34,869 nt of DNA from Rhodospirillales bacterium (GTDB lineage Bacteria > Pseudomonadota > Alphaproteobacteria > Reyranellales > Reyranellaceae): positions 1 through 34,869 of the forward strand of contig CANIRG010000012.1 in assembly GCA_947469635.1 (NCBI GenBank), given 5' to 3'. A model generated the notes under the pieces. It was not told the origin of the DNA. It saw only the letters and a list, made by a program, of their open reading frames with translations, and did no database searches. This document shows, in pieces, positions 25,589 through 34,869 of the stretch (its first letter is position 1; each line of letters opens with the position of its first letter). The position numbers and the translations under genes are program-made.

Positions 25589-25840
25589 CTATGAAGGCGA
25601 CGCGCGCTTGCGCAATGCGGCGACGACGCGATGCACATAGGCGACCGCGCCCAGCGCCAGCACGATGCAGACGACCCACACCAGCGTGCCGACCATGGCG
25701 GAGAGCGGCGGAACCGAGATCATCCCGAAGGCGAGGCCGAGGACGAAGTAGAAGATCATCGCGATCGCGAACAGCGCGACCACGCCATGCAGCAGCCCCT
25801 TGGCCACCACCTTGAACTCGCCGACGAGAATGTCCTTCAT
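25589..25840 (-). CDS. Small two-helix membrane protein
   Basis: ATG 25840 follows a strong ribosome site (GGAGGGGGG). The 83-residue protein starts MKDILVGEFKVVAKGLLHGVVALFAIAMIFYFVLGLAFGMI and has a second helix VGTLVWVVCIVLALGAVAYVHRVVAALRKR. No family recognised. It is 42 bases upstream of the MFS gene on the same strand and probably in the same transcript. Confidence 0.7.
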   Translation of the reverse strand: MKDILVGEFKVVAKGLLHGVVALFAIAMIFYFVLGLAFGMISVPPLSAMVGTLVWVVCIVLALGAVAYVHRVVAALRKRASPS

Positions 25841-25913
25841 CTCAATCCCCCCTCCGACGCAGCTGGCATCGGGTCCAGCCTGCTCCCTCGACCTCGGCGC
25901 GCGATCGCGCGCG

Positions 25914-27092
25914 CTACTTGCAGACGTCCATCGATCCCGGCGCGCAGACCCGGCCGTCGCTCCAGATGGCGCCCGTGAGATCGACGCCCCGGAAGCTGAC
26001 GCCCTCGAGAACCGCGTTCGTGAGGTCGATGCCGCGAAACTCGCCGCCCACCACGAAGGCGTCGCGGAGATCGGCTCCCTTCAAGTTGGCGTCCTGGAAC
26101 TTGGATACCTTCAGCGCGGCGCGGCGGAGATTGGCGCCCTGCAGGTTGGCGCCGCGCAGGTCGATACCGAGCAGCTGGATGCCCTCCAGATCGCTTCCCG
26201 CCAGGACGGCGCCCGCAAGGCTGGCGCCGCCCGACAGGTTGGCTCGCCTGAGCGTCGCCCCCTGCAGCTTGACGCCCGTCAGGTTGGCATTCAGCAGAAT
26301 GGCATCCGTCAGCACGGCACCGCGAAGATCGGCGCCGCTGAGGTCGGCCGACTCGAGAATGGCCCCCCGCAAGCTTGCCCCCTCGAGGTTGGCCGACTGG
26401 AGGCGGGCGCTCGTGAAGTTGACGGCCCGCAGGTCGGCGCCCTTCAAATTGGCGCCGTTCAGCCTGGCGCTGCTCAGGCTGGCGCCCTTCAGCTTGGCCA
26501 TCCGCAGGTCGCTCCCTGCCAGGTCGACGCCCCGCAGGGTGGCGAATTCGAGGTTGGCGCCCTCCAGGTCGGCGCCCTGGAGATCGGCGCTCGACAGCTT
26601 GACGCTCTGCAGGTTGGCGCCCTTCAGCTTGGCGTCCTTGAGCTTGGCGTGCTCCAGCTTGGCGCCGCGCAGGTCGACGCCGGCCAGCTGGGCGCCGGTG
26701 AGGTCGGCGGACTCGAGGACGGTCCCCTCCAGGTCAGCCCCCCGCAGGTCGGCACCCGCAAGGTCGGCGTCGGTGAGATCGGCGTCCGTCAGATCGGCGT
26801 CGCGCAGGTTGGCGCCGGCCAGAAAGGTCTTGGTGAGGTCCGCGCGGGCGAGCCTCGCGCCCTGGAGGTTCGCGGCCTCCAGGTGCACGCCCTCCAGGTC
26901 GGAATTCTCCAGGTTGATGCCCTGCAGGTTGGCCCCCGCAATATTTTGCTCCTTGAGGTCGGTGCCGGTCATGTCGCAGGCCCGCCAGTTCACGGCGGGG
27001 GCCGGAGGATCGCCGCACTCCGCCCGGGCAGCCATCGGCGCGCAGGCCAGCAGGACGCCGGCCAGGAAGCAGATGACGCTGATACGCTGCAT
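25914..27092 (-). CDS. Secreted pentapeptide-repeat protein with cysteine caps (copy 1)
   Basis: ATG 27092 follows GGGAG at seven bases; a signal peptide (MQRISVICFLAGVLLACAPMAARA, then ECGD) is clear. The 392-residue protein is almost entirely A(D/N)LxG-type pentapeptide repeats, about 65 units, so it should form a long right-handed quadrilateral beta-helix. The ends differ from the repeats: an N-cap with Cys-x12-Cys (CGDPPAPAVNWRAC) and a C-cap WSDGRVC then seven residues then Cys. These four are the only cysteines in the mature protein and are well placed for two disulfides. One register break occurs at LSGGASLAG. Same caps occur in the gene at 29125. Function unknown; pentapeptide proteins include DNA mimics, but an exported one cannot act on gyrase in its own cytoplasm. 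Confidence 0.9.
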   Translation of the reverse strand: MQRISVICFLAGVLLACAPMAARAECGDPPAPAVNWRACDMTGTDLKEQNIAGANLQGINLENSDLEGVHLEAANLQGARLARADLTKTFLAGANLRDADLTDADLTDADLAGADLRGADLEGTVLESADLTGAQLAGVDLRGAKLEHAKLKDAKLKGANLQSVKLSSADLQGADLEGANLEFATLRGVDLAGSDLRMAKLKGASLSSARLNGANLKGADLRAVNFTSARLQSANLEGASLRGAILESADLSGADLRGAVLTDAILLNANLTGVKLQGATLRRANLSGGASLAGAVLAGSDLEGIQLLGIDLRGANLQGANLRRAALKVSKFQDANLKGADLRDAFVVGGEFRGIDLTNAVLEGVSFRGVDLTGAIWSDGRVCAPGSMDVCK

Positions 27093-27193
27093 GTCGGTCT
27101 CCCATCCGTCACCGGCATCGAAGCACATGCCCATGATTGCCGCGACGGGCAACCGTCAATAGTGTCGGGTCGCAACTCGGGGAAGCCGCAACG

Positions 27194-28168
27194 ATGCACG
27201 CCTGTCCAGCTGGCTCGGCCTTCATGAAGATCGCACCGGCGGTCGCGGCCCTCGCGCTGTCGCTCGCCGCCGCCCCGGCGCCGGCACAGACCTACGACGA
27301 GTTGGCCAAGTGGTGCTATGACGAGTCGACCGACCGCCAGAGCCTCCAGGGATGCGACGCCGTCATCGCGGCGGGACGCGAGCATCCGACACGCCTCGCG
27401 GGGGCGCACTTCAATCGCGGCAAGGCGTACGAGAACCTGAACGAGCCCGAGCGCGCGATCGCCGATTACAGCGAGGCGATCAGGCTGCTGCCCAAGGCCT
27501 ATCCCGCCTTCTACGCCCGCGGCAACCAGTACAGGTTCACCGAGCGCTACGACCTCGCCCTCGCCGACTACGACCGGGCGATCGAGCTCAGCTCCGACTA
27601 CACCGACGCCTTCGCGGCACGCGCCGACACCTACTACGCCAAGGGGCAATACCGGCGCGCCATCGTCGACTACGACCGGGCGATCGAGCTGCGGCCGGCC
27701 GATGACCAATATGTCGGCGCCCGTGCCCGGACCTATGCCGCCGACGGGCAGCACGCCCGCGCCCTGCAGGATTACGACCGGGTCGTCGAGCTCGGCATGC
27801 GCGACGTCGAGACCCTCGGCGACCGCTGCTTCTCCCGCGCCATCGTGGGCCAGCTCCAGGAAGCGCTCGAGGACTGCAACGCCGCCCTGGAGAGCGTCCC
27901 CGACCTGCCCGAAAGCCTCGTGGGTCGCGGCCTCGCCCATCTCAAGCTCGGCCGGCTGGCCGAAGCCATCGCCGACTGGGACCTGGCCGTCGCGGCGGAC
28001 GCGCAGACCTGGAGCGCGCGCAAGCGAGCGATCGCCCTGTTCGGCCGCGGCGTGGCGAAACGCCGGACCGGCGACACGATGGGCGGCGACGCCGACATCG
28101 CCGCCGCGAGGGCGCTGCAGGCCGGCATCGCGGACGACTTCACGAAATGGGGCATCGGCGGGTTTTGA
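27194..28168 (+). CDS. Exported TPR-repeat protein
   Basis: ATG 27194 is preferred (GGGAAG nine bases upstream); ATG 27224 gives a shorter signal peptide (KIAPAVAALALSLAAAPAPAQ). The 324-residue protein has about seven tetratricopeptide units, seen as AHFNRGKAYENLNEPERAIADYSEAIRLLP, AYPAFYARGNQYRFTERYDLALADYDRAIELS, and on to SLVGRGLAHLKLGRLAEAIADWDLAVAA. Near the N-terminus WCYDESTDRQSLQGCDAVIAAG carries a Cys pair typical of exported TPR proteins of alphaproteobacteria. It should be a periplasmic protein-protein scaffold. Divergent from the first pentapeptide gene across about 100 bases. Confidence 0.85.
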   Translation: MHACPAGSAFMKIAPAVAALALSLAAAPAPAQTYDELAKWCYDESTDRQSLQGCDAVIAAGREHPTRLAGAHFNRGKAYENLNEPERAIADYSEAIRLLPKAYPAFYARGNQYRFTERYDLALADYDRAIELSSDYTDAFAARADTYYAKGQYRRAIVDYDRAIELRPADDQYVGARARTYAADGQHARALQDYDRVVELGMRDVETLGDRCFSRAIVGQLQEALEDCNAALESVPDLPESLVGRGLAHLKLGRLAEAIADWDLAVAADAQTWSARKRAIALFGRGVAKRRTGDTMGGDADIAAARALQAGIADDFTKWGIGGF

Positions 28169-28173
28169 CACGG

Positions 28174-28725
28174 ATGATGATGTGGCTTCGCTCCTACGGG
28201 CTGCCGATCGGCGCCGTCGCCGGACTGTCGGCGCTGGTCGCGGCATCGACCACCGTGGACGGCACCAGCTACGAGATCGCCTGGCTGCAGCCGGTCGCCA
28301 CCTGGGGCGGCACCGGCGGCAACAAGATCGACTATCAGCTCGTCTTCCTGCCGGACAAGGTGCGCGTGAAAGGTCCCGGCCTGCGCGACGTCGGCGGCTG
28401 CGAGGCAGCGGGGCTGGAAATTCCGAGGAACGGCGAGGCCAGGCATCAGTCGTCCGACGCGGCGACGAAGGTGACCATCGCCTACGCCATCGACGGCAGC
28501 ACGCATCGCATCACGCTCGCGACGACGGCGCGCCCGCCGAATGCCGCCGAACACACCGAGGTGTCCAGGCTCGACCTGAAGCTCGACGGAAATTCCTGCC
28601 GCCTGGTTTCCTACACACGGGGCGACACGTTGGCCCCCAGCGAAAACCTGGCCGGCGAGTTCCACTACAGATGCGTGCCCTTCCCGCTCCCGGCCTTCGA
28701 GGAAGGCCGCAGCTGCGAGGAATGA
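28174..28725 (+). CDS. Exported or membrane-anchored hypothetical protein
   Basis: Three ATGs (28174, 28177, 28180) start a 183-residue product five bases after the TPR gene, with no good ribosome site, so it is probably translated by coupling. The N-terminus (WLRSYGLPIGAVAGLSALVAASTTV) is a signal peptide or anchor. The mature part has three or four cysteines (VGGCEAAGL, GNSCRLVSY, HYRCVPF, GRSCEE) and beta-rich segments (TKVTIAYAIDGSTHRITLATT). No family recognised. Its place after the TPR gene and between two pentapeptide-repeat genes suggests a shared envelope role, which is inference. Confidence 0.7.
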   Translation: MMMWLRSYGLPIGAVAGLSALVAASTTVDGTSYEIAWLQPVATWGGTGGNKIDYQLVFLPDKVRVKGPGLRDVGGCEAAGLEIPRNGEARHQSSDAATKVTIAYAIDGSTHRITLATTARPPNAAEHTEVSRLDLKLDGNSCRLVSYTRGDTLAPSENLAGEFHYRCVPFPLPAFEEGRSCEE

Positions 28726-29124
28726 CACGACGAGATGGACGCCTCTCGACGACGGCCTTCCGCTGTCGGATTCACGTATTTGGCTGAGATGAAATCGGCC
28801 CTGCCTCCCTGCGCGAAGCGCGGGGAGGCGGCAGCGTCTTACCCGTGACCCCTCCGCCCTCGTATGACGAGGGCACCTCCCCTTGCTACGCAAGGGGAGG
28901 AAAGCTGCGTTCTCTAAACGAGCGGCCTTTCCTCCCTGCGCGAAGCGCGGGGAGGTGGCAGCGTCTTACGCTGACGGAGGGGTCGGAGGCTCCATTCGGC
29001 GCTCATGCCCCCTCCGTCGCCGTATGACGGCGCCACCTCCCCTTGCTACGCAAGGGGAGGAAAGCTGCGTTCTCTAAACGAGATGTGTGAATGTGATCGA
29101 TAGCGCCTCACGTCGAGATGCGGC
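28726..29124. other. Intergenic repeat region between convergent genes
   Basis: This 399-base gap is mostly repeat DNA (28804-29082, described separately) with short flanks of no evident function. It separates the convergent unknown gene and second pentapeptide gene. The short ORFs across it follow the repeats and have no ribosome sites. Confidence 0.6.
28804..29082. repeat. Composite extragenic repeat, two tandem copies
   Basis: Two modules repeat in tandem. Module one (hairpin arms CCTCCC.../...GGGGAGG followed by GGCAGCGTCTTA) is at 28804-28841 and 28931-28968. Module two, 49 identical bases with the hairpin CCTCCCCTTG/CAAGGGGAGG followed by AAAGCTGCGTTCTCTAAACGAG, is at 28874-28922 and 29034-29082. 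Between them at 28973-29018 is the 46-base palindromic element also found at 4272-4317 (opposite orientation). Confidence 0.75.
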
Positions 29125-30270
29125 CTACCTGCATTCCCCCTTCGAGCCGGCGGCGCAGAGGCGGCCGTCGCTCCAGGTTGCGCCGTCGAGCTTGGCGCCC
29201 CTCAGGAAGGCCTCCTGCGGCCTGGTGCCCGTGAGGTTGGCGCCCGACAGGTCGGCGTCCAGCAGATAGGCGCCCTCCAGGTCGACGCCCTGGAGGTTCG
29301 CCCCCGACAGCCTGGCCTCGGCCATCAGCGCCCCCTTCAGGCTGATGCCGCGCAGGTCGACGCCGCTCAGGTCGACGCGCTCGAGGACGGCACCCTCCAG
29401 CTTGGCGCCGTCGAGCTCGGCGCCGCGAAGATCGGCGCCCATCAGGAAGGCGCGCTGCAGGAGGGCGCCCTGCAGCCTGGCCTTCCGCAGGTTGGCGTCC
29501 ACGAGGGTGACGCTGGTGAGGTCGGCCTTGCGCAGGTCGGCGCCGGTGAAGACGGCGAGCGGCAGGTTGGCGCTCGACAGGTTGGCGCCCGCCAGCGTGG
29601 CTCCGGTGAAGTTCGAGGTCCGCATGTTCGCGCCCTCGAGATTGGCCGCCGAAAGGTCGGCGCCCGCGAGGTTGGCGCCCACGACGACGGCAATCGCCAG
29701 CCTGGCGCCCTGCAGCCTGGCGTTCGACAGGTCGGCGCCGCTCAGGATCGCGGTCTCCAGATCGACGCCGCGCAGGTCGGCGCCCGACAGGTTGGCCCGG
29801 GACAGGAAGGCGCCGGCGAGATTGACGCCCGTCAGCGTGGCACCCGCGAGGTTGCTGCCCTCCATGTTGGCATCGCCCACCTTGGCGTTCGTGAGGTCGG
29901 CGCCGGACAGGCTGGCACCCTTCAGGTCGGTAGCCATCAGGTTCGCGTGCGTGAGATCGGCCTTGTCGAGAACCGCCCCGCTGAGAAGCACGCCCGTCAG
30001 GATGGCGTGCGGGAGGCGGGCCTCGCGAAGGTTGGCGAGCTCCAGCCGGGCGCCTATCAGATGGGCCTTCGCCAGATCGGCGCCCTGCAGGTTGGTCCCC
30101 CGGAGGTCGGCCCAATCCAGGTCGGCATCGCGCAGGTCGGCGCCCGCCTTGTTGCAATCGCGCCAGTCGACGTCGGTCGCCGGCGGGTCGTCGCAGGCGG
30201 CCTGGGCGATCAGCGGCGCGCAGGCCAGCAGGGCGCCGGCCAGGGCCCGCCTCACGCTGCTGCATTTCAT
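29125..30270 (-). CDS. Secreted pentapeptide-repeat protein with cysteine caps (copy 2)
   Basis: ATG 30270 opens a signal peptide (MKCSSVRRALAGALLACAPL, IAQA, then ACDD). The 381-residue product is about 63 pentapeptide units of the A(D/N)LxxA type (DADLDWADLRGTNLQGADLA and so on). It has the same caps as the gene at 25914: Cys-x12-Cys at the mature N-terminus (CDDPPATDVDWRDC) and WSDGRLC plus seven residues plus Cys at the end. Again the mature protein has just these four cysteines. The central repeats differ in sequence, so the two are paralogues with conserved ends. No ribosome site as strong as that of copy 1 is seen. Confidence 0.9.
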   Translation of the reverse strand: MKCSSVRRALAGALLACAPLIAQAACDDPPATDVDWRDCNKAGADLRDADLDWADLRGTNLQGADLAKAHLIGARLELANLREARLPHAILTGVLLSGAVLDKADLTHANLMATDLKGASLSGADLTNAKVGDANMEGSNLAGATLTGVNLAGAFLSRANLSGADLRGVDLETAILSGADLSNARLQGARLAIAVVVGANLAGADLSAANLEGANMRTSNFTGATLAGANLSSANLPLAVFTGADLRKADLTSVTLVDANLRKARLQGALLQRAFLMGADLRGAELDGAKLEGAVLERVDLSGVDLRGISLKGALMAEARLSGANLQGVDLEGAYLLDADLSGANLTGTRPQEAFLRGAKLDGATWSDGRLCAAGSKGECR

Positions 30271-30523: not shown

Positions 30524-33079
30524 GTGGACCTCATCCAGAAGGACGCCAAACGGGCATCCGACCGCCGTGGCTCCGTACGATGGCGCATTGCCGTGCTGTT
30601 CGGGACAGGCGCCGCGCTGACGGCCGGGGTGCTGGCGGCTCTGCTGCTGCAGCTGCGCGCCGACGCCATCGCCGCCAGCCACAAGCTCCTCACGGCAGTC
30701 GCCCAGCTCACCGACGAGCAGACGTCGCGCACCCTGCAGAACGTCGAGCAGGCGCTATTCAACGCCGAGGCGATCCTTGCCGCGGCGGACCTGTCGGCGG
30801 CCTTCCCGCCGAGCCTGACCGGCGGTGTCCCCGTCGGCGCCGGCTCGATCGACAGCGAGCTCCGCAAGCTGGTCGAGGAACGGCCCTATCTCGCCGTGAT
30901 GCGCGTGCTCGACCGGCACGGCCGCGCCATCCACGGCAGCGACACCGGCTACACCGGCATCGACCTTTCCGACCGGGCCTACTTCACCGAGCGCCGCGAC
31001 GGCCGCGAGACCGGCTTCAAGTTCGACCTGCCCATCCGCAACCGGGTGGCAGGCAAATGGATCATCCCCGCGACGCGGACCGTGCGCACGACCAGCGGCG
31101 ACTTCGCCGGCGTGATCGTCGCCGCCATCGATCCGCTGTTCTTCCACCGCGTCTGGGCACTCGACGAGGAGATTCCCAGGCTCTCCATGACCCTGTTCCG
31201 TGCCGACGGCGTGATGTTGATGCGCAGCCCGTTCAGCGAGCGGCTCATCGGCACCTCCTACAGCAGCGAATATGTCTTCCGTCAGGTGCGCGCGGGCGTC
31301 CGCGCCGGCACCTTCCAGAACAGGAGCAGCGTCGACGGCGAGATGCGCCTGTTCGCCTTCCGCCAGCTCACCGCCTATCCCGACCTGGTCCTCGTCACCG
31401 GCCAGGGCATGGACCAGGCGCTGGCCGCCTGGTGGCGCATCCTGTGGATCGTGGTGTCCAGCTGGACCGTGGCCGCGCTGATCGTGGGCGCGCTGACGCT
31501 GTGGCTGGCGCGCGAGTGGAAGGCCCGCCATGACACCCAGACCCGCTACCGCACCCTGTTCGACGCCAATCCCTACCCGATGGTGGTGATGGACCCGCCG
31601 ACACGGAGGTTCCTCGACGTCAACGACGCCGCGGTGACGGAATATGGCTGGTCGCGCGAGGAAGCCCTGAAGATGACCGCCGACGATCTCTATACCCCCG
31701 AGGATCTGGTGGCGGTCTCGGCGGTGCGCCGGCAGGGTGTGTCGGAATCGGTCCGCGTCATCCCCGGGCTGCGCCATCGCCGCAAGGACGGCACCGTCTT
31801 CGACGTCGAGCTGCACACGCGCGGCATCGACCTCGACGGCAGGGCCGCCATATTGACCACGGCCGAGAACGTGAGCCCGCGCCACGCCGCCGAGGCGCAG
31901 CTACGGCAGGCGCAGAAGATGGAAGCCGTGGGCCAGCTCACCGGCGGCATCGCCCACGACTTCAACAACATCCTGATGGTGATCCTGGCCAACGCCGATG
32001 CCCTGCAGGAGGACGAGGCCACCCTCGATGCCGCGACGCTGGCCCTGCGCCTCGAGCAGATCTCCCAGGCCGTCCTGCGCGCGTCGGACCTCACCCGCCA
32101 GCTGCTCACCTTCTCGCGCAAGGCGGACCTCATGCCCCGCCACACCGACCTCAACGAGCTGGTGTCGGGCACCGGCAAGCTGCTGCGCCGCGCATTGGGC
32201 GAGCATATCGAGATCGACTCGGTGCTGGTCGGCAATCTGTGGACCGTCAACGTCGACCGCGCCCAGCTCGAGACGGCGCTGGTCAATCTCTGCGTCAACG
32301 CCCGCGACGCCATGCCCGACGGCGGCAAGCTCAGGATCGAGACGCGCAACGTCACCCTCGACAAGGACAACATCACGCAGGCCACCGACGTCGCACCCGG
32401 CGACTATGCCATGATCGCCGTCACCGACACCGGCAGCGGCATGTCGGCCGAGGTGCGGGCCAAGGTGTTCGAGCCCTTCTTCACGACCAAGGAGGTCGGC
32501 AAGGGCACGGGTCTCGGCCTCAGCATGGTCTATGGATTCATCAAGCAGTCCAACGGCCACATCACGATCCACAGCGAGCCCGGACGTGGCACCACCTTCA
32601 GGCTCTACCTGCCGCGCAGCCACGGCCTGCGGGAAGATGTGGCGATGCAGCCGACGGCGCCCATGGCGCGCGGCAGCGAGCGCATCCTGGTCGTCGAGGA
32701 CGAGCCGCAGGTCCGCGCCAGCGTCGTGCAGCAGCTGCGAAGCCTGGGCTACGACGTGGCCGAGGCGGCCAACGGCGCCGCGGGGCTGGCGGCATTCGCG
32801 GCGGCGCCCCTGCCCTTCGACCTGCTGCTGACCGACCTCGTCATGCCCGGCCCGCTCGGCGGCAAGGCACTCGCCGACGAGGTGACCCGCCGCTGGCCGA
32901 AGTCGAGCATCGTCTTCATGTCGGGCTACACCAGGAATACGGCGTTGCACGACGCCGAGCCCGGCGCCGAGGTGCTGCTGCTGAGCAAGCCGTTCCGCAA
33001 GCGCGATCTGGCGCGGATCGTTCGCCTGGCACTGGACGGCCCCGGCTCCCCCGACAGCGTGCTCCCGGAGGCGGCGTAA
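30524..33079 (+). CDS. Hybrid sensor histidine kinase (dCACHE-PAS-HisKA-HATPase-REC), copy 1
   Basis: GTG 30524 follows AGGGA. The 851-residue protein has a membrane helix (about 22-44), a periplasmic dCACHE-like sensor (about 45-300; [33 protein letters not shown]), a second helix (about 307-329), a PAS domain (about 340-460), HisKA with phospho-His478 in [11 protein letters not shown], HATPase (N-box [29 protein letters not shown]) and a receiver with VVEDEP and phospho-Asp771 (LLTDLVMPG) and LSKPF. All catalytic residues are present. It probably passes phosphate through its own receiver to an unlinked regulator. The frame is complete and a second copy follows 204 bases later. Confidence 0.93.
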
Positions 33080-33283
33080 GCCGCGGACATGGCTCTTTGT
33101 TAGTCACAGGCGAGCGTTTGACACGTGACGTAGAAGCGCCCACGGCTTTTTCCCGGCGGACGGCACCTTAAAGGGTCCTTGCGTCGGAACAGTACGCACC
33201 TCCTCCGTTGACATAAGCGGATGCAAAGCATCGATCGGTGACGACTGCTGCTGCACGCGTTGGGGTGGCGACCAGGGAATCGC
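33080..33283 (+). promoter_or_regulatory. Intergenic gap with duplicated leader of kinase 2
   Basis: The gap between the two kinases. From 33116 it is the copy of the leader before kinase 1; the last 80 bases are the most alike (CCTCCGTTG, ATAAGCGGATGCA, GACTGCTGCTGCACGCGTTGG). This shows that the duplication carried its regulatory region, so each kinase can be expressed on its own. Confidence 0.45.
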
Positions 33284-34869
33284 GTGGACGTCATCGAGAG
33301 CGATCCCCTGCCGGCATCCAAGCCTCGTGGCTTCGCGCGGCATCGCGTCGCCGTGCTGTTCTGCTCGGGGACCGCGCTGACGGCCGCCGTGCTGGCGGGC
33401 CTGCTGCTGCAGCTTCGCGCCGACGCCATCGCCGCCAGCTACAAGCTTCTGACGGCCGTCGCGCAGCTCGCCGACGAGCAGACGTCGCGCACCCTGCAGA
33501 ACGTCGAGCAGGCCCTGTCGAGCGCCGAGGCGATCCTTGCCGAGGCGACGCTGCCGGCCACCTTCCCGCGGCCGCCGACCGGCGTCGAGTCGGTCGATGG
33601 TGAACTCCGGAAGCTGGTCGACGAGCGCCCCTATCTCACCCTGATACGCGTGCTCGACGCGCGTGGCCGCGCCGTCCATGGCAGCGACACCGGCTATGCC
33701 GGGATCGATTTTTCCGACCGGACCTATTTCACCGACCGTCGCGACGGCCGCGAGAGCGGCTTCAAGTTCGACCTGCCGATCCGCAGCCGGGTGGCCAGGC
33801 AATGGATCATTCCCGCCGCGCGGACCGTGCGCACGGCCGGCGGCGAGTTTGCCGGGGTGATCGGCGCCGCCATCGATCCCCTGTTCTTCACCCGCGTCTG
33901 GGCGCTCGAGGAGGAGATTCCGACGCTCTCCATGACCCTGTTCCGCGCCGACGGCATCATGATGATGCGCAGCCCGTTCAACGAAAAGTTCATCGGCGTG
34001 TCGTATGGCAGCTTCCACGTCTTCCAGCAGATCCGCGCGGGCGTCCGTGCCGGGACCTACCAGAACAGGAGCACCGTCGACGGCGAGATCCGGCTGTTCG
34101 CCTTTCGCCAGCTCGCCGCCTATCCCGACCTGGTCCTCGTCACCGGCCAGGCCATCGATCAGGCGCTGGCCGCCTGGTGGCGCATCGTGTGGATCGTCGT
34201 CTCCGGCTGGATCGCCGCCACGCTGATCGTAGGCGGGCTGACGCTGTGGCTGACGCGCGAATGGAAAGCGCGCCTCGACTCGCAGATCCGCTATCGGACG
34301 CTGTTCGACGCCAATCCCTATCCCATGGTGGTGATGGACCCGGCGACGCGGACCTTCCTCGACGTCAACGATGCCGCGGTGAAGGAATATGGCTGGTCGC
34401 GCGAGGAAGCCTTGAAGATGACCGCCGACGATCTCTATACCCCCGAGGATCTGGCGGCGGTCTCGGCGGTGCGCCGGCAGGGTGTGTCGGAATCGGTCCG
34501 CATCATCCCCGGGCTGCGCCATCGCCGCAAGGACGGGACCGTCTTCGACGTCGAGATGCACACGCGCGGCATCGACCTCGACGGCAAGGCCGCCATATTG
34601 ACCACGGCCGAGAACGTGAGCCCGCGCCACGCCGCCGAGGCGCAGCTACGACAGGCGCAGAAGATGGAGGCGGTGGGCCAGCTCACCGGCGGCATCGCCC
34701 ACGACTTCAACAACATCCTGATGGTCATCCTGGCCAACGCCGATTCGCTGCAGGAGGACGAGGCCACCCTCGATGCCGCGACGCTGGCCCTGCGCCTCGA
34801 GCAGATCTCCCAGGCCGTCCTGCGCGCGTCGGACCTCACCCGCCAGCTGCTCACCTTCTCGCGCAAGGC
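33284..34869 (+). CDS. Hybrid sensor histidine kinase, copy 2 (3' end outside window)
   Basis: GTG 33284 matches the start of copy 1 in position and context (AGGGAATCGC). The frame is open to the window edge, 528 codons, with no stop. Domain order matches copy 1: first helix (VAVLFCSGTALTAAVLAGLLLQL), dCACHE-like sensor, second helix (WWRIVWIVVSGWIAATLIVGGLTLWL), PAS and HisKA with phospho-His473 ([11 protein letters not shown]). The sensor differs from copy 1 at many residues and lacks four residues near 95, while PAS and HisKA are almost identical even at DNA level. HATPase and receiver presumably follow beyond the window. Confidence 0.9.
   Translation, partial: MDVIESDPLPASKPRGFARHRVAVLFCSGTALTAAVLAGLLLQLRADAIAASYKLLTAVAQLADEQTSRTLQNVEQALSSAEAILAEATLPATFPRPPTGVESVDGELRKLVDERPYLTLIRVLDARGRAVHGSDTGYAGIDFSDRTYFTDRRDGRESGFKFDLPIRSRVARQWIIPAARTVRTAGGEFAGVIGAAIDPLFFTRVWALEEEIPTLSMTLFRADGIMMMRSPFNEKFIGVSYGSFHVFQQIRAGVRAGTYQNRSTVDGEIRLFAFRQLAAYPDLVLVTGQAIDQALAAWWRIVWIVVSGWIAATLIVGGLTLWLTREWKARLDSQIRYRTLFDANPYPMVVMDPATRTFLDVNDAAVKEYGWSREEALKMTADDLYTPEDLAAVSAVRRQGVSESVRIIPGLRHRRKDGTVFDVEMHTRGIDLDGKAAILTTAENVSPRHAAEAQLRQAQKMEAVGQLTGGIAHDFNNILMVILANADSLQEDEATLDAATLALRLEQISQAVLRASDLTRQLLTFSRK

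What the first reader, a model, noticed from the sequence alone, without database searches (positions are those of the whole stretch)
25914..30270. Pair of secreted pentapeptide-repeat proteins with matching cysteine caps around a TPR gene
Two exported proteins made of about 65 pentapeptide units each carry the same end modules: Cys-x12-Cys at the mature N-terminus and WSDGR(V/L)C plus seven residues plus Cys at the C-terminus. They have no other mature cysteine. The repeats between differ, so the caps are under constraint. Best-known pentapeptide proteins are cytoplasmic; disulfide-capped beta-helices made for the periplasm or the outside would be a distinct structural class. An exported TPR scaffold and a Cys-containing exported protein lie between them, suggesting an envelope assembly. 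The disulfides and the assembly are inference.
Basis: partly seen in the sequence, partly recalled or inferred. Interest (0 to 1): 0.62.

Follow-up and report, generated by a model that had tools for sequence, protein, structure and literature searches.

The report
Long cysteine-capped secreted beta-helix proteins
Two exported rod-shaped proteins share the same cysteine-bearing end caps because they are stretched relatives of a widespread family of small secreted bacterial proteins; capped envelope proteins of this sort are already known, but these unusually long, paired versions are a new variant.

Summary
P1 (25914-27092, minus) and P2 (29125-30270, minus) are exported pentapeptide-repeat proteins with matching caps: Cys-x12-Cys at the mature N-terminus, WSDGR(V/L)C-x7-Cys at the C-terminus, no other mature cysteine. 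AlphaFold2 gives P2 a beta-helix along its whole length (pLDDT 94).

The caps recur in 147 distinct proteins, 134 with exactly 111 residues between caps. A search with the N-cap alone found both C-cap cysteines in 29 of the 30 loci read. P1 and P2 fall instead in a length-variable group (11 proteins, 5 genomes) outside the fixed-length group in a caps-only tree. Adjacent capped genes recur in three other genomes.

The TPR and unknown genes do not look like partners: no match at E<0.05 in 96 fetched neighbourhoods, 91 holding a fully capped gene.

The 'distinct structural class' is largely in print: Caulobacter YjbI/PerA is a secreted outer-membrane pentapeptide protein with cysteine pairs flanking its helix (PMC12864828). 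Disulfides remain unshown. P1/P2 lack YjbI's charged C-terminal tail, so they are not filed as YjbI. New variant of a known kind.

The parts
25914..27092 (-). P1, exported capped pentapeptide-repeat protein, 392 aa (mature 368)
27021..27092 (-). P1 probable signal peptide, 24 aa, ending ARA (contains LLAC, possible lipobox)
   Evidence: sequence; cleavage site judged by eye, no signal-peptide program available
26976..27017 (-). P1 N-cap, CGDPPAPAVNWRAC (Cys-x12-Cys)
25920..25964 (-). P1 C-cap, WSDGRVCAPGSMDVC
29125..30270 (-). P2, exported capped pentapeptide-repeat protein, 381 aa (mature 357)
   Evidence: AlphaFold2
30199..30270 (-). P2 probable signal peptide, 24 aa, ending AQA (contains LLAC)
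   Evidence: sequence; judged by eye
30154..30195 (-). P2 N-cap, CDDPPATDVDWRDC
29131..29175 (-). P2 C-cap, WSDGRLCAAGSKGEC
27224..28168 (+). TPR protein with probable signal peptide, 314 aa; neighbour, not shown to be a partner
28174..28725 (+). 183-aa protein of no known family with hydrophobic N-terminus; neighbour, not shown to be a partner
28800..29085 (.). copy of a dispersed palindromic intergenic repeat (75 matches in this genome, both strands and the window's own copy counted)

Best explanation
P1 and P2 are secreted pentapeptide-repeat beta-helices closed at both ends by conserved cysteine-bearing caps. They are long members of a length-variable group that lies outside a widespread alphaproteobacterial group whose members nearly all have the same short helix. 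Most likely each protein crosses the inner membrane by Sec, folds into one rigid four-sided rod (about 16-17 coils, roughly 8 nm at a recalled 0.48 nm per coil, against about 3 nm for the short group), and the two cysteines of each cap pair with each other and seal the otherwise open ends against unfolding, edge-to-edge aggregation and proteolysis. By analogy with Caulobacter YjbI/PerA the rod sits in or on the outer membrane and serves as an envelope structural or stress-sensing element. Shown here: anatomy, confident fold prediction, cap conservation, length classes, no conserved partner genes. Inferred: export route, disulfides, location, function. The TPR and 183-aa genes are most likely unrelated neighbours.
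For: Caps, signals and four cysteines; PF00805; AlphaFold2 mean pLDDT 94.1 for P2 and 97.9 for a short relative, cap blocks about 85-97; nearest solved folds are pentapeptide beta-helices. C-cap profile: 90 of 289 class genomes at E<=0.1; 25 of the 29 non-window loci fetched there also have the N-cap. N-cap profile alone: C-cap in 29 of the 30 best loci, all 31 genes read having exactly four cysteines; 26 of 27 loci when genomes used to build the profile are left out. Core of exactly 111 aa in 134 of 147. Caps-only tree: 69 rows, all but two with a 111 core, form one group (93/98); P1, P2 and nine other length-variable proteins lie outside. YjbI: secreted, outer-membrane, cysteine pairs at both ends (PMC12864828, sections 5, 14, 18 read).
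Against: No coordinates were available, so cysteine distances in the models were not measured. Residues 85-87 of the P2 model have pLDDT under 50. YjbI cysteines react with maleimide in cells, read by the authors as accessible reduced cysteines, and changing all four to serine does not stop zinc-induced turnover; which lanes had DTT is not stated in the text read. [quoted passage not shown] The Caulobacter YjbI sequence was not obtained, so homology of its caps is untested. The tree rests on 65 columns, its bootstrap had not settled, the 93/98 fork falls short of the tool's star, and the G733 rows are long branches. The signals may be lipoprotein signals.
Confidence: 0.55

Rival explanations
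1. P1, the TPR protein, the 183-aa protein and P2 form one envelope assembly encoded together.
For: All four look exported and are contiguous; TPR proteins often act as scaffolds (general knowledge).
Against: Opposite strands; no TPR or 183-aa homologue at E<0.05 in 95 fetched neighbourhoods, 90 of them with a fully capped gene (one TPR match at E=0.066 in L138), nor in the G733 locus (35-residue match, E=0.13). The 183-aa gene occurs in 2 of 61 genomes. TPR relatives, a generic repeat family, are found in 46 of 61 genomes of the genus at E<=1e-30, the own one included, whereas capped proteins are convincing in only the window's genome of 65.
Confidence: 0.06
2. The cap cysteines are metal (for example zinc) ligands or redox-active thiols rather than disulfides; the protein is a surface stress sensor whose cap state is read out.
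For: YjbI is removed on zinc stress and its cysteines react with maleimide; the fixed spacings x12 and x7 would suit either.
Against: The 4CS YjbI variant still turns over with zinc; 146 of 147 homologues have exactly four cysteines between and including the caps, which fits paired oxidised cysteines in an oxidising compartment.
Confidence: 0.2
3. P1 and P2 are lipoproteins (signal peptidase II cutting at LLAC), anchored to the outer membrane, the cap cysteines being a separate feature.
For: Both signals carry LLAC; two relatives with the C-cap (L067, L073) have LAGC.
Against: A-x-A one residue before the first cap cysteine in P1, P2 and, by eye and not counted, many relatives that have no cysteine in the signal; L at -2 is an unusual lipobox (recalled).
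Confidence: 0.25
4. Cytoplasmic gyrase-protecting proteins like Qnr or MfpA.
For: Same fold family.
Against: Probable signal peptides; scores far below the Qnr and MfpA cut-offs.
Confidence: 0.02

Closest known systems
YjbI / PerA (CCNA_01968), secreted pentapeptide-repeat protein of Caulobacter crescentus (PMC12864828, named sections; PerA also in PMC7690452, passages)
   Same: Secretion signal, quadrilateral beta-helix (predicted in both), one conserved cysteine pair at each end, four cysteines.
   Different: YjbI is 183 residues and needs lysines at its C-terminal tail; P1/P2 are 392 and 381 residues and stop one residue after the last cysteine. The YjbI sequence was not compared.
Fixed-length capped pentapeptide proteins of Alphaproteobacteria
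   Same: Same N-cap (C-x12-C with V-x-W) and C-cap (W-x-D-G then C-x7-C), four cysteines.
   Different: Core of exactly 111 residues in nearly all; P1/P2 cores are 337 and 326. No family name was sought for the short proteins themselves; P1 and P2 match only repeat families in Pfam and NCBIfam.
Rfr32 of Cyanothece (PDB 2F3L, 2G0Y) and the Arabidopsis lumenal protein (3N90)
   Same: Lumenal pentapeptide beta-helices with a disulfide-stabilised C-terminal cap (PMC8145042, passages).
   Different: Their N-terminal ends were not compared.

Membership tests
PF00805 Pentapeptide | Score over the gathering cut-off | tested here: met
   295 and 290 bits against 20.2
PF00805 Pentapeptide | Quadrilateral beta-helix | tested here: met
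   P2 only, prediction: strand residue about every fifth position, mean pLDDT 94.1, residues 85-87 under 50; best PDB matches are pentapeptide helices. P1 was not modelled
YjbI-type sPRP (PMC12864828, section 18) | Secretion signal | tested here: met
   By eye, 24-residue signals; no predictor run
YjbI-type sPRP (PMC12864828, section 18) | Two conserved cysteine pairs flanking the helix | tested here: met
YjbI-type sPRP (PMC12864828, section 18) | Charged C-terminal tail required for function | tested here: not met
   P1 ends CK, P2 ends CR, one residue after the last cysteine
YjbI-type sPRP (PMC12864828, section 18) | Outer-membrane surface location and silencing of UzcSR/ChvGI | not testable with these tools
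   needs experiment
YjbI-type sPRP (PMC12864828, section 18) | Sequence homology of the caps to Caulobacter YjbI | not tested
   YjbI sequence was not obtained
Alr5209 family (NCBIfam NF052603) | Score over the curated cut-off | tested here: inconclusive
   277.6 and 191.5 bits against 125, so formally over it, but summed over 7 and 6 repeat stretches of a 113-position model, the best lying mid-helix
Qnr / MfpA / HetL | Score over the curated cut-off | tested here: not met
   P1/P2: Qnr 107.6/93.5 of 240; MfpA 108.6/101.1 of 360; HetL 184/252.2 of 260, P2 being just under

The most novel reading that the evidence does not exclude
There is a group of cysteine-capped secreted beta-helices in which the caps are kept but rod length is free to change, often encoded as adjacent genes of unequal length, beside a group whose rod length is frozen at 111 core residues; the long rods could act as rigid spacers or rulers in the envelope, lengthened largely by whole helix coils (7 of 11 cores differ by multiples of 20 residues).
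Probability: 0.2. Interest if true: 0.62.

Novelty: new variant of a known kind. Interest (0 to 1): 0.42.

Why it matters
Secreted pentapeptide proteins are poorly understood; the paper of 2026 on Caulobacter YjbI gives one a clear envelope role. This work gives sequence signatures for both caps, shows that they travel together across many alphaproteobacterial families, that one group keeps its helix length fixed almost to the residue, and that another tolerates rods about three times longer. That makes it testable what the caps do and whether helix length is matched to something in the envelope. In the sequence search of solved structures, no best-matching stretch covers both C-cap cysteines.

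Tried and rejected
Assembly with the TPR and 183-aa genes: not supported. Recent internal DNA duplication as origin of the long helices: no direct repeats of 45 bases or more found by an ungapped search. Contig from another organism: argued against by a dispersed repeat with 75 matches in the genome; the genome itself is listed at 88.43% complete, 4.26% contaminated. Whole-coil lengthening: of the 11 variable-group cores, 106, 126, 126, 186, 186, 206 and 326 are 6 modulo 20, but 143, 170, 212 and 337 are not, and 212 and 206 come from sister genomes; suggestive only. Defence-system annotation: none for P1, the TPR and the 183-aa protein; P2 was not scanned. Plasmid searches matched 686 and 340 records; in the second list only a Tistrella mobilis replicon (51% over 99% of the query) looked like a family member by coverage, and the others were not inspected. 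The N-cap profile in 398 genomes of the phylum matched 11, nine of the window's class and two of other classes: G733, which has capped genes, and G470, in which my pattern found no capped frame. Rows dropped or not counted: L080_156, a regex artefact of a protein already counted as L080_141; proteins with another N-cap (L051, L053, L067, L073, L076, L084) or another C-cap (L246, L254, L257, L259); loci where my pattern found nothing (in one search: L090, L105, L109-L115, L132, L155, L157). Of the 99 genomes matched only the 30 fetched loci were read; many weaker matches there align only with the repeat half of the profile. The weak matches in G070 and G030 were not inspected.

Full report
What is there. 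Two minus-strand genes, P1 (25914-27092) and P2 (29125-30270), encode exported pentapeptide-repeat proteins of 392 and 381 aa. After 24-residue signals (judged by eye) the mature chains start E/A-C, carry Cys-x12-Cys, run through about 67 and 65 pentapeptides, and end WSDGR(V/L)C-x7-C plus one basic residue. There are four mature cysteines in each, all in the caps. They are 49% identical over an alignment of 402 columns. Pfam finds pentapeptide repeats and no cap family. Between them, on the plus strand, lie a TPR gene (27224-28168) and a 183-aa gene without a Pfam, NCBIfam or PADLOC match (28174-28725), then a copy of a dispersed palindromic repeat (28800-29085; 75 matches in the genome, both strands and the own copy counted), which argues that the contig belongs to this genome.

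Structure. AlphaFold2 with an alignment of P2, P1 and 12 related proteins gives P2 a helix with a strand residue about every five positions along the whole chain, mean pLDDT 94.1; residues 85-87 fall under 50, and the cap blocks are at about 85-97. A short relative gives 97.9. P1 was not modelled. Foldseek's best matches are pentapeptide beta-helices: HetL, synthetic solenoids, Qnr, MfpA. Cysteine distances could not be read because coordinates are not released to the session. A profile of ten short relatives matches 31 distinct PDB sequences at E<=0.01, but the best stretches end at or before profile position 134 of 143; the C-cap cysteines are at positions 134 and 142, so no best stretch covers both.

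The caps elsewhere. A 25-residue C-cap profile built from P1 and P2 alone matches 90 of 289 genomes of the class at E<=0.1, of which 51 (my hand count of the table) have E<=0.001. Of the 29 non-window loci fetched with that search, 25 also have the Cys-x12-Cys N-cap; the other four have a different N-terminal cysteine pair (L051, L053) or look like lipoproteins (L067, L073). In reverse, an N-cap profile without C-cap information matched 99 of 385 genomes at E<=0.001; of the 30 loci fetched, 29 have the C-cap with both cysteines, and all 31 genes read there have exactly four cysteines. In the one miss, L211, the frame seems broken: the N-cap and C-cap matches on that contig lie in different frames. 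Three of the 30 loci are in genomes used to build the profile; without them it is 26 of 27. Named hosts include Azospirillum, Paramagnetospirillum, Kiloniella, Roseospira and Telmatospirillum. Over the phylum, 11 of 398 genomes matched the N-cap profile at E<=1e-5, two of them outside the class.

Length classes. Pooling the loci and dropping one regex artefact gives 147 distinct cap-to-cap proteins. The core between the second N-cap cysteine and the C-cap tryptophan is exactly 111 residues in 134: 67 of 67 first seen in the genome-contig scan, which favours that length, and 67 of 80 first seen through the genome search. Exceptions are 106, 110, 117, 126 (twice), 143, 170, 186 (twice), 206, 212, 326 (P2) and 337 (P1). 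One protein (L092) has five cysteines from cap to cap, the other 146 four. The two G733 proteins have slightly different cap spacings (x9 in the C-cap; x13 in one N-cap). A tree of caps plus adjoining residues, with no information on length, groups 69 rows (support 93/98; all with a 111 core except one of 110 and one of 117) and leaves outside them 11 proteins: P1, P2, and those of G139 (106), G174 and G445 (126, 186, and 212 or 206) and G733 (143, 170). G174 and G445 also hold fixed-length copies inside the 69 (L097, L243), so the two groups are paralogues there. The tree has 65 columns, an unsettled bootstrap and many weak forks. In G174 and G445 two capped genes are adjacent on one strand, and in G733, from another class of the same phylum, two capped genes and a third with a C-cap only by my pattern lie in a row. 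So adjacent capped genes recur without the TPR and 183-aa genes.

Neighbours. tblastn of the TPR and 183-aa proteins against 95 fetched neighbourhoods (0.94 Mb; flanks limited by contig ends; 90 hold a gene with both caps by my patterns) found one TPR match at E=0.066 and no match to the 183-aa protein at E<=0.1; the G733 locus gave a 35-residue match of the 183-aa protein at E=0.13. The 183-aa protein has relatives in 2 of 61 genomes: the own genome, which has a second copy, and one of 36 others of the genus. TPR relatives at E<=1e-30 occur in 46 of 61 genomes of the genus, the own one included, but TPR is a generic repeat. The C-cap profile matches only the window's genome convincingly among 65 of the genus; two weak matches (E 0.002 and 0.004) lie in frames of 70 and 52 aa and were not inspected. 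The pair therefore looks acquired by, or kept only in, this lineage (inference).

What is known. PMC12864828 (EMBO J 2026; abstract, sections 5, 14, 18, 29 and passages read) describes Caulobacter YjbI (CCNA_01968, also PerA): 183 residues, Sec signal, AlphaFold beta-helix with a cysteine pair at each end, outer-membrane location, control of two envelope-stress two-component systems and of antibiotic sensitivity. It lists three conserved features; P1/P2 meet the signal and the cysteine pairs and fail the charged tail, so they are not filed as YjbI, though they may work like it. The maleimide experiment there is read as two surface-exposed and two shielded reactive cysteines; the text read does not say which samples needed DTT, so for me it neither proves nor excludes disulfides. 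PMC7690452 (passages read) calls PerA a surface-exposed outer-membrane protein and possible receptor of the Cdz toxin. PMC8145042 (passages read) reports lumenal pentapeptide proteins with a disulfide in a C-terminal helical cap. My five literature searches (listings seen) showed no title or abstract on these cap motifs or on long capped proteins; most subscription papers are not in that library, including the PerA paper.

Verdict. What seems new is the elongated, length-variable group beside a length-frozen one. Mending the counts did not require a change of odds.

Noticed in passing
28800-29085: Palindromic intergenic repeat with 75 matches in the own genome; lies between the 183-aa gene and P2.
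   Followed up: partly
L254, L257, L259 (also L246): Secreted-looking pentapeptide proteins with the same type of N-cap but another C-terminal end, CGDxxTxLPxGLxxPxxWPC; possibly the rhizobial YjbI type, not tested.
   Followed up: partly
L051, L053, L076, L084, L067, L073: Proteins with the same C-cap but a shorter N-terminal pair, about Cys-x7-Cys or Cys-x8-Cys; L067 and L073 look like lipoproteins with a long tail after the C-cap.
   Followed up: no
L262:7276-9586: Three pentapeptide genes in a row in a genome of another class: two with both caps and a third with a C-cap-like end.
   Followed up: partly
25918-27162 and 25800-27227, plus strand: Long open frames opposite P1, as expected from a GC-rich repeat; no evidence that they are genes.
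   Followed up: no
30524-33079 and about 33100-34630: Hybrid histidine kinase with dCache, PAS and receiver domains beside P2; antisense translations show that the stretch after it resembles it, so a second such kinase may run off the window.
   Followed up: no
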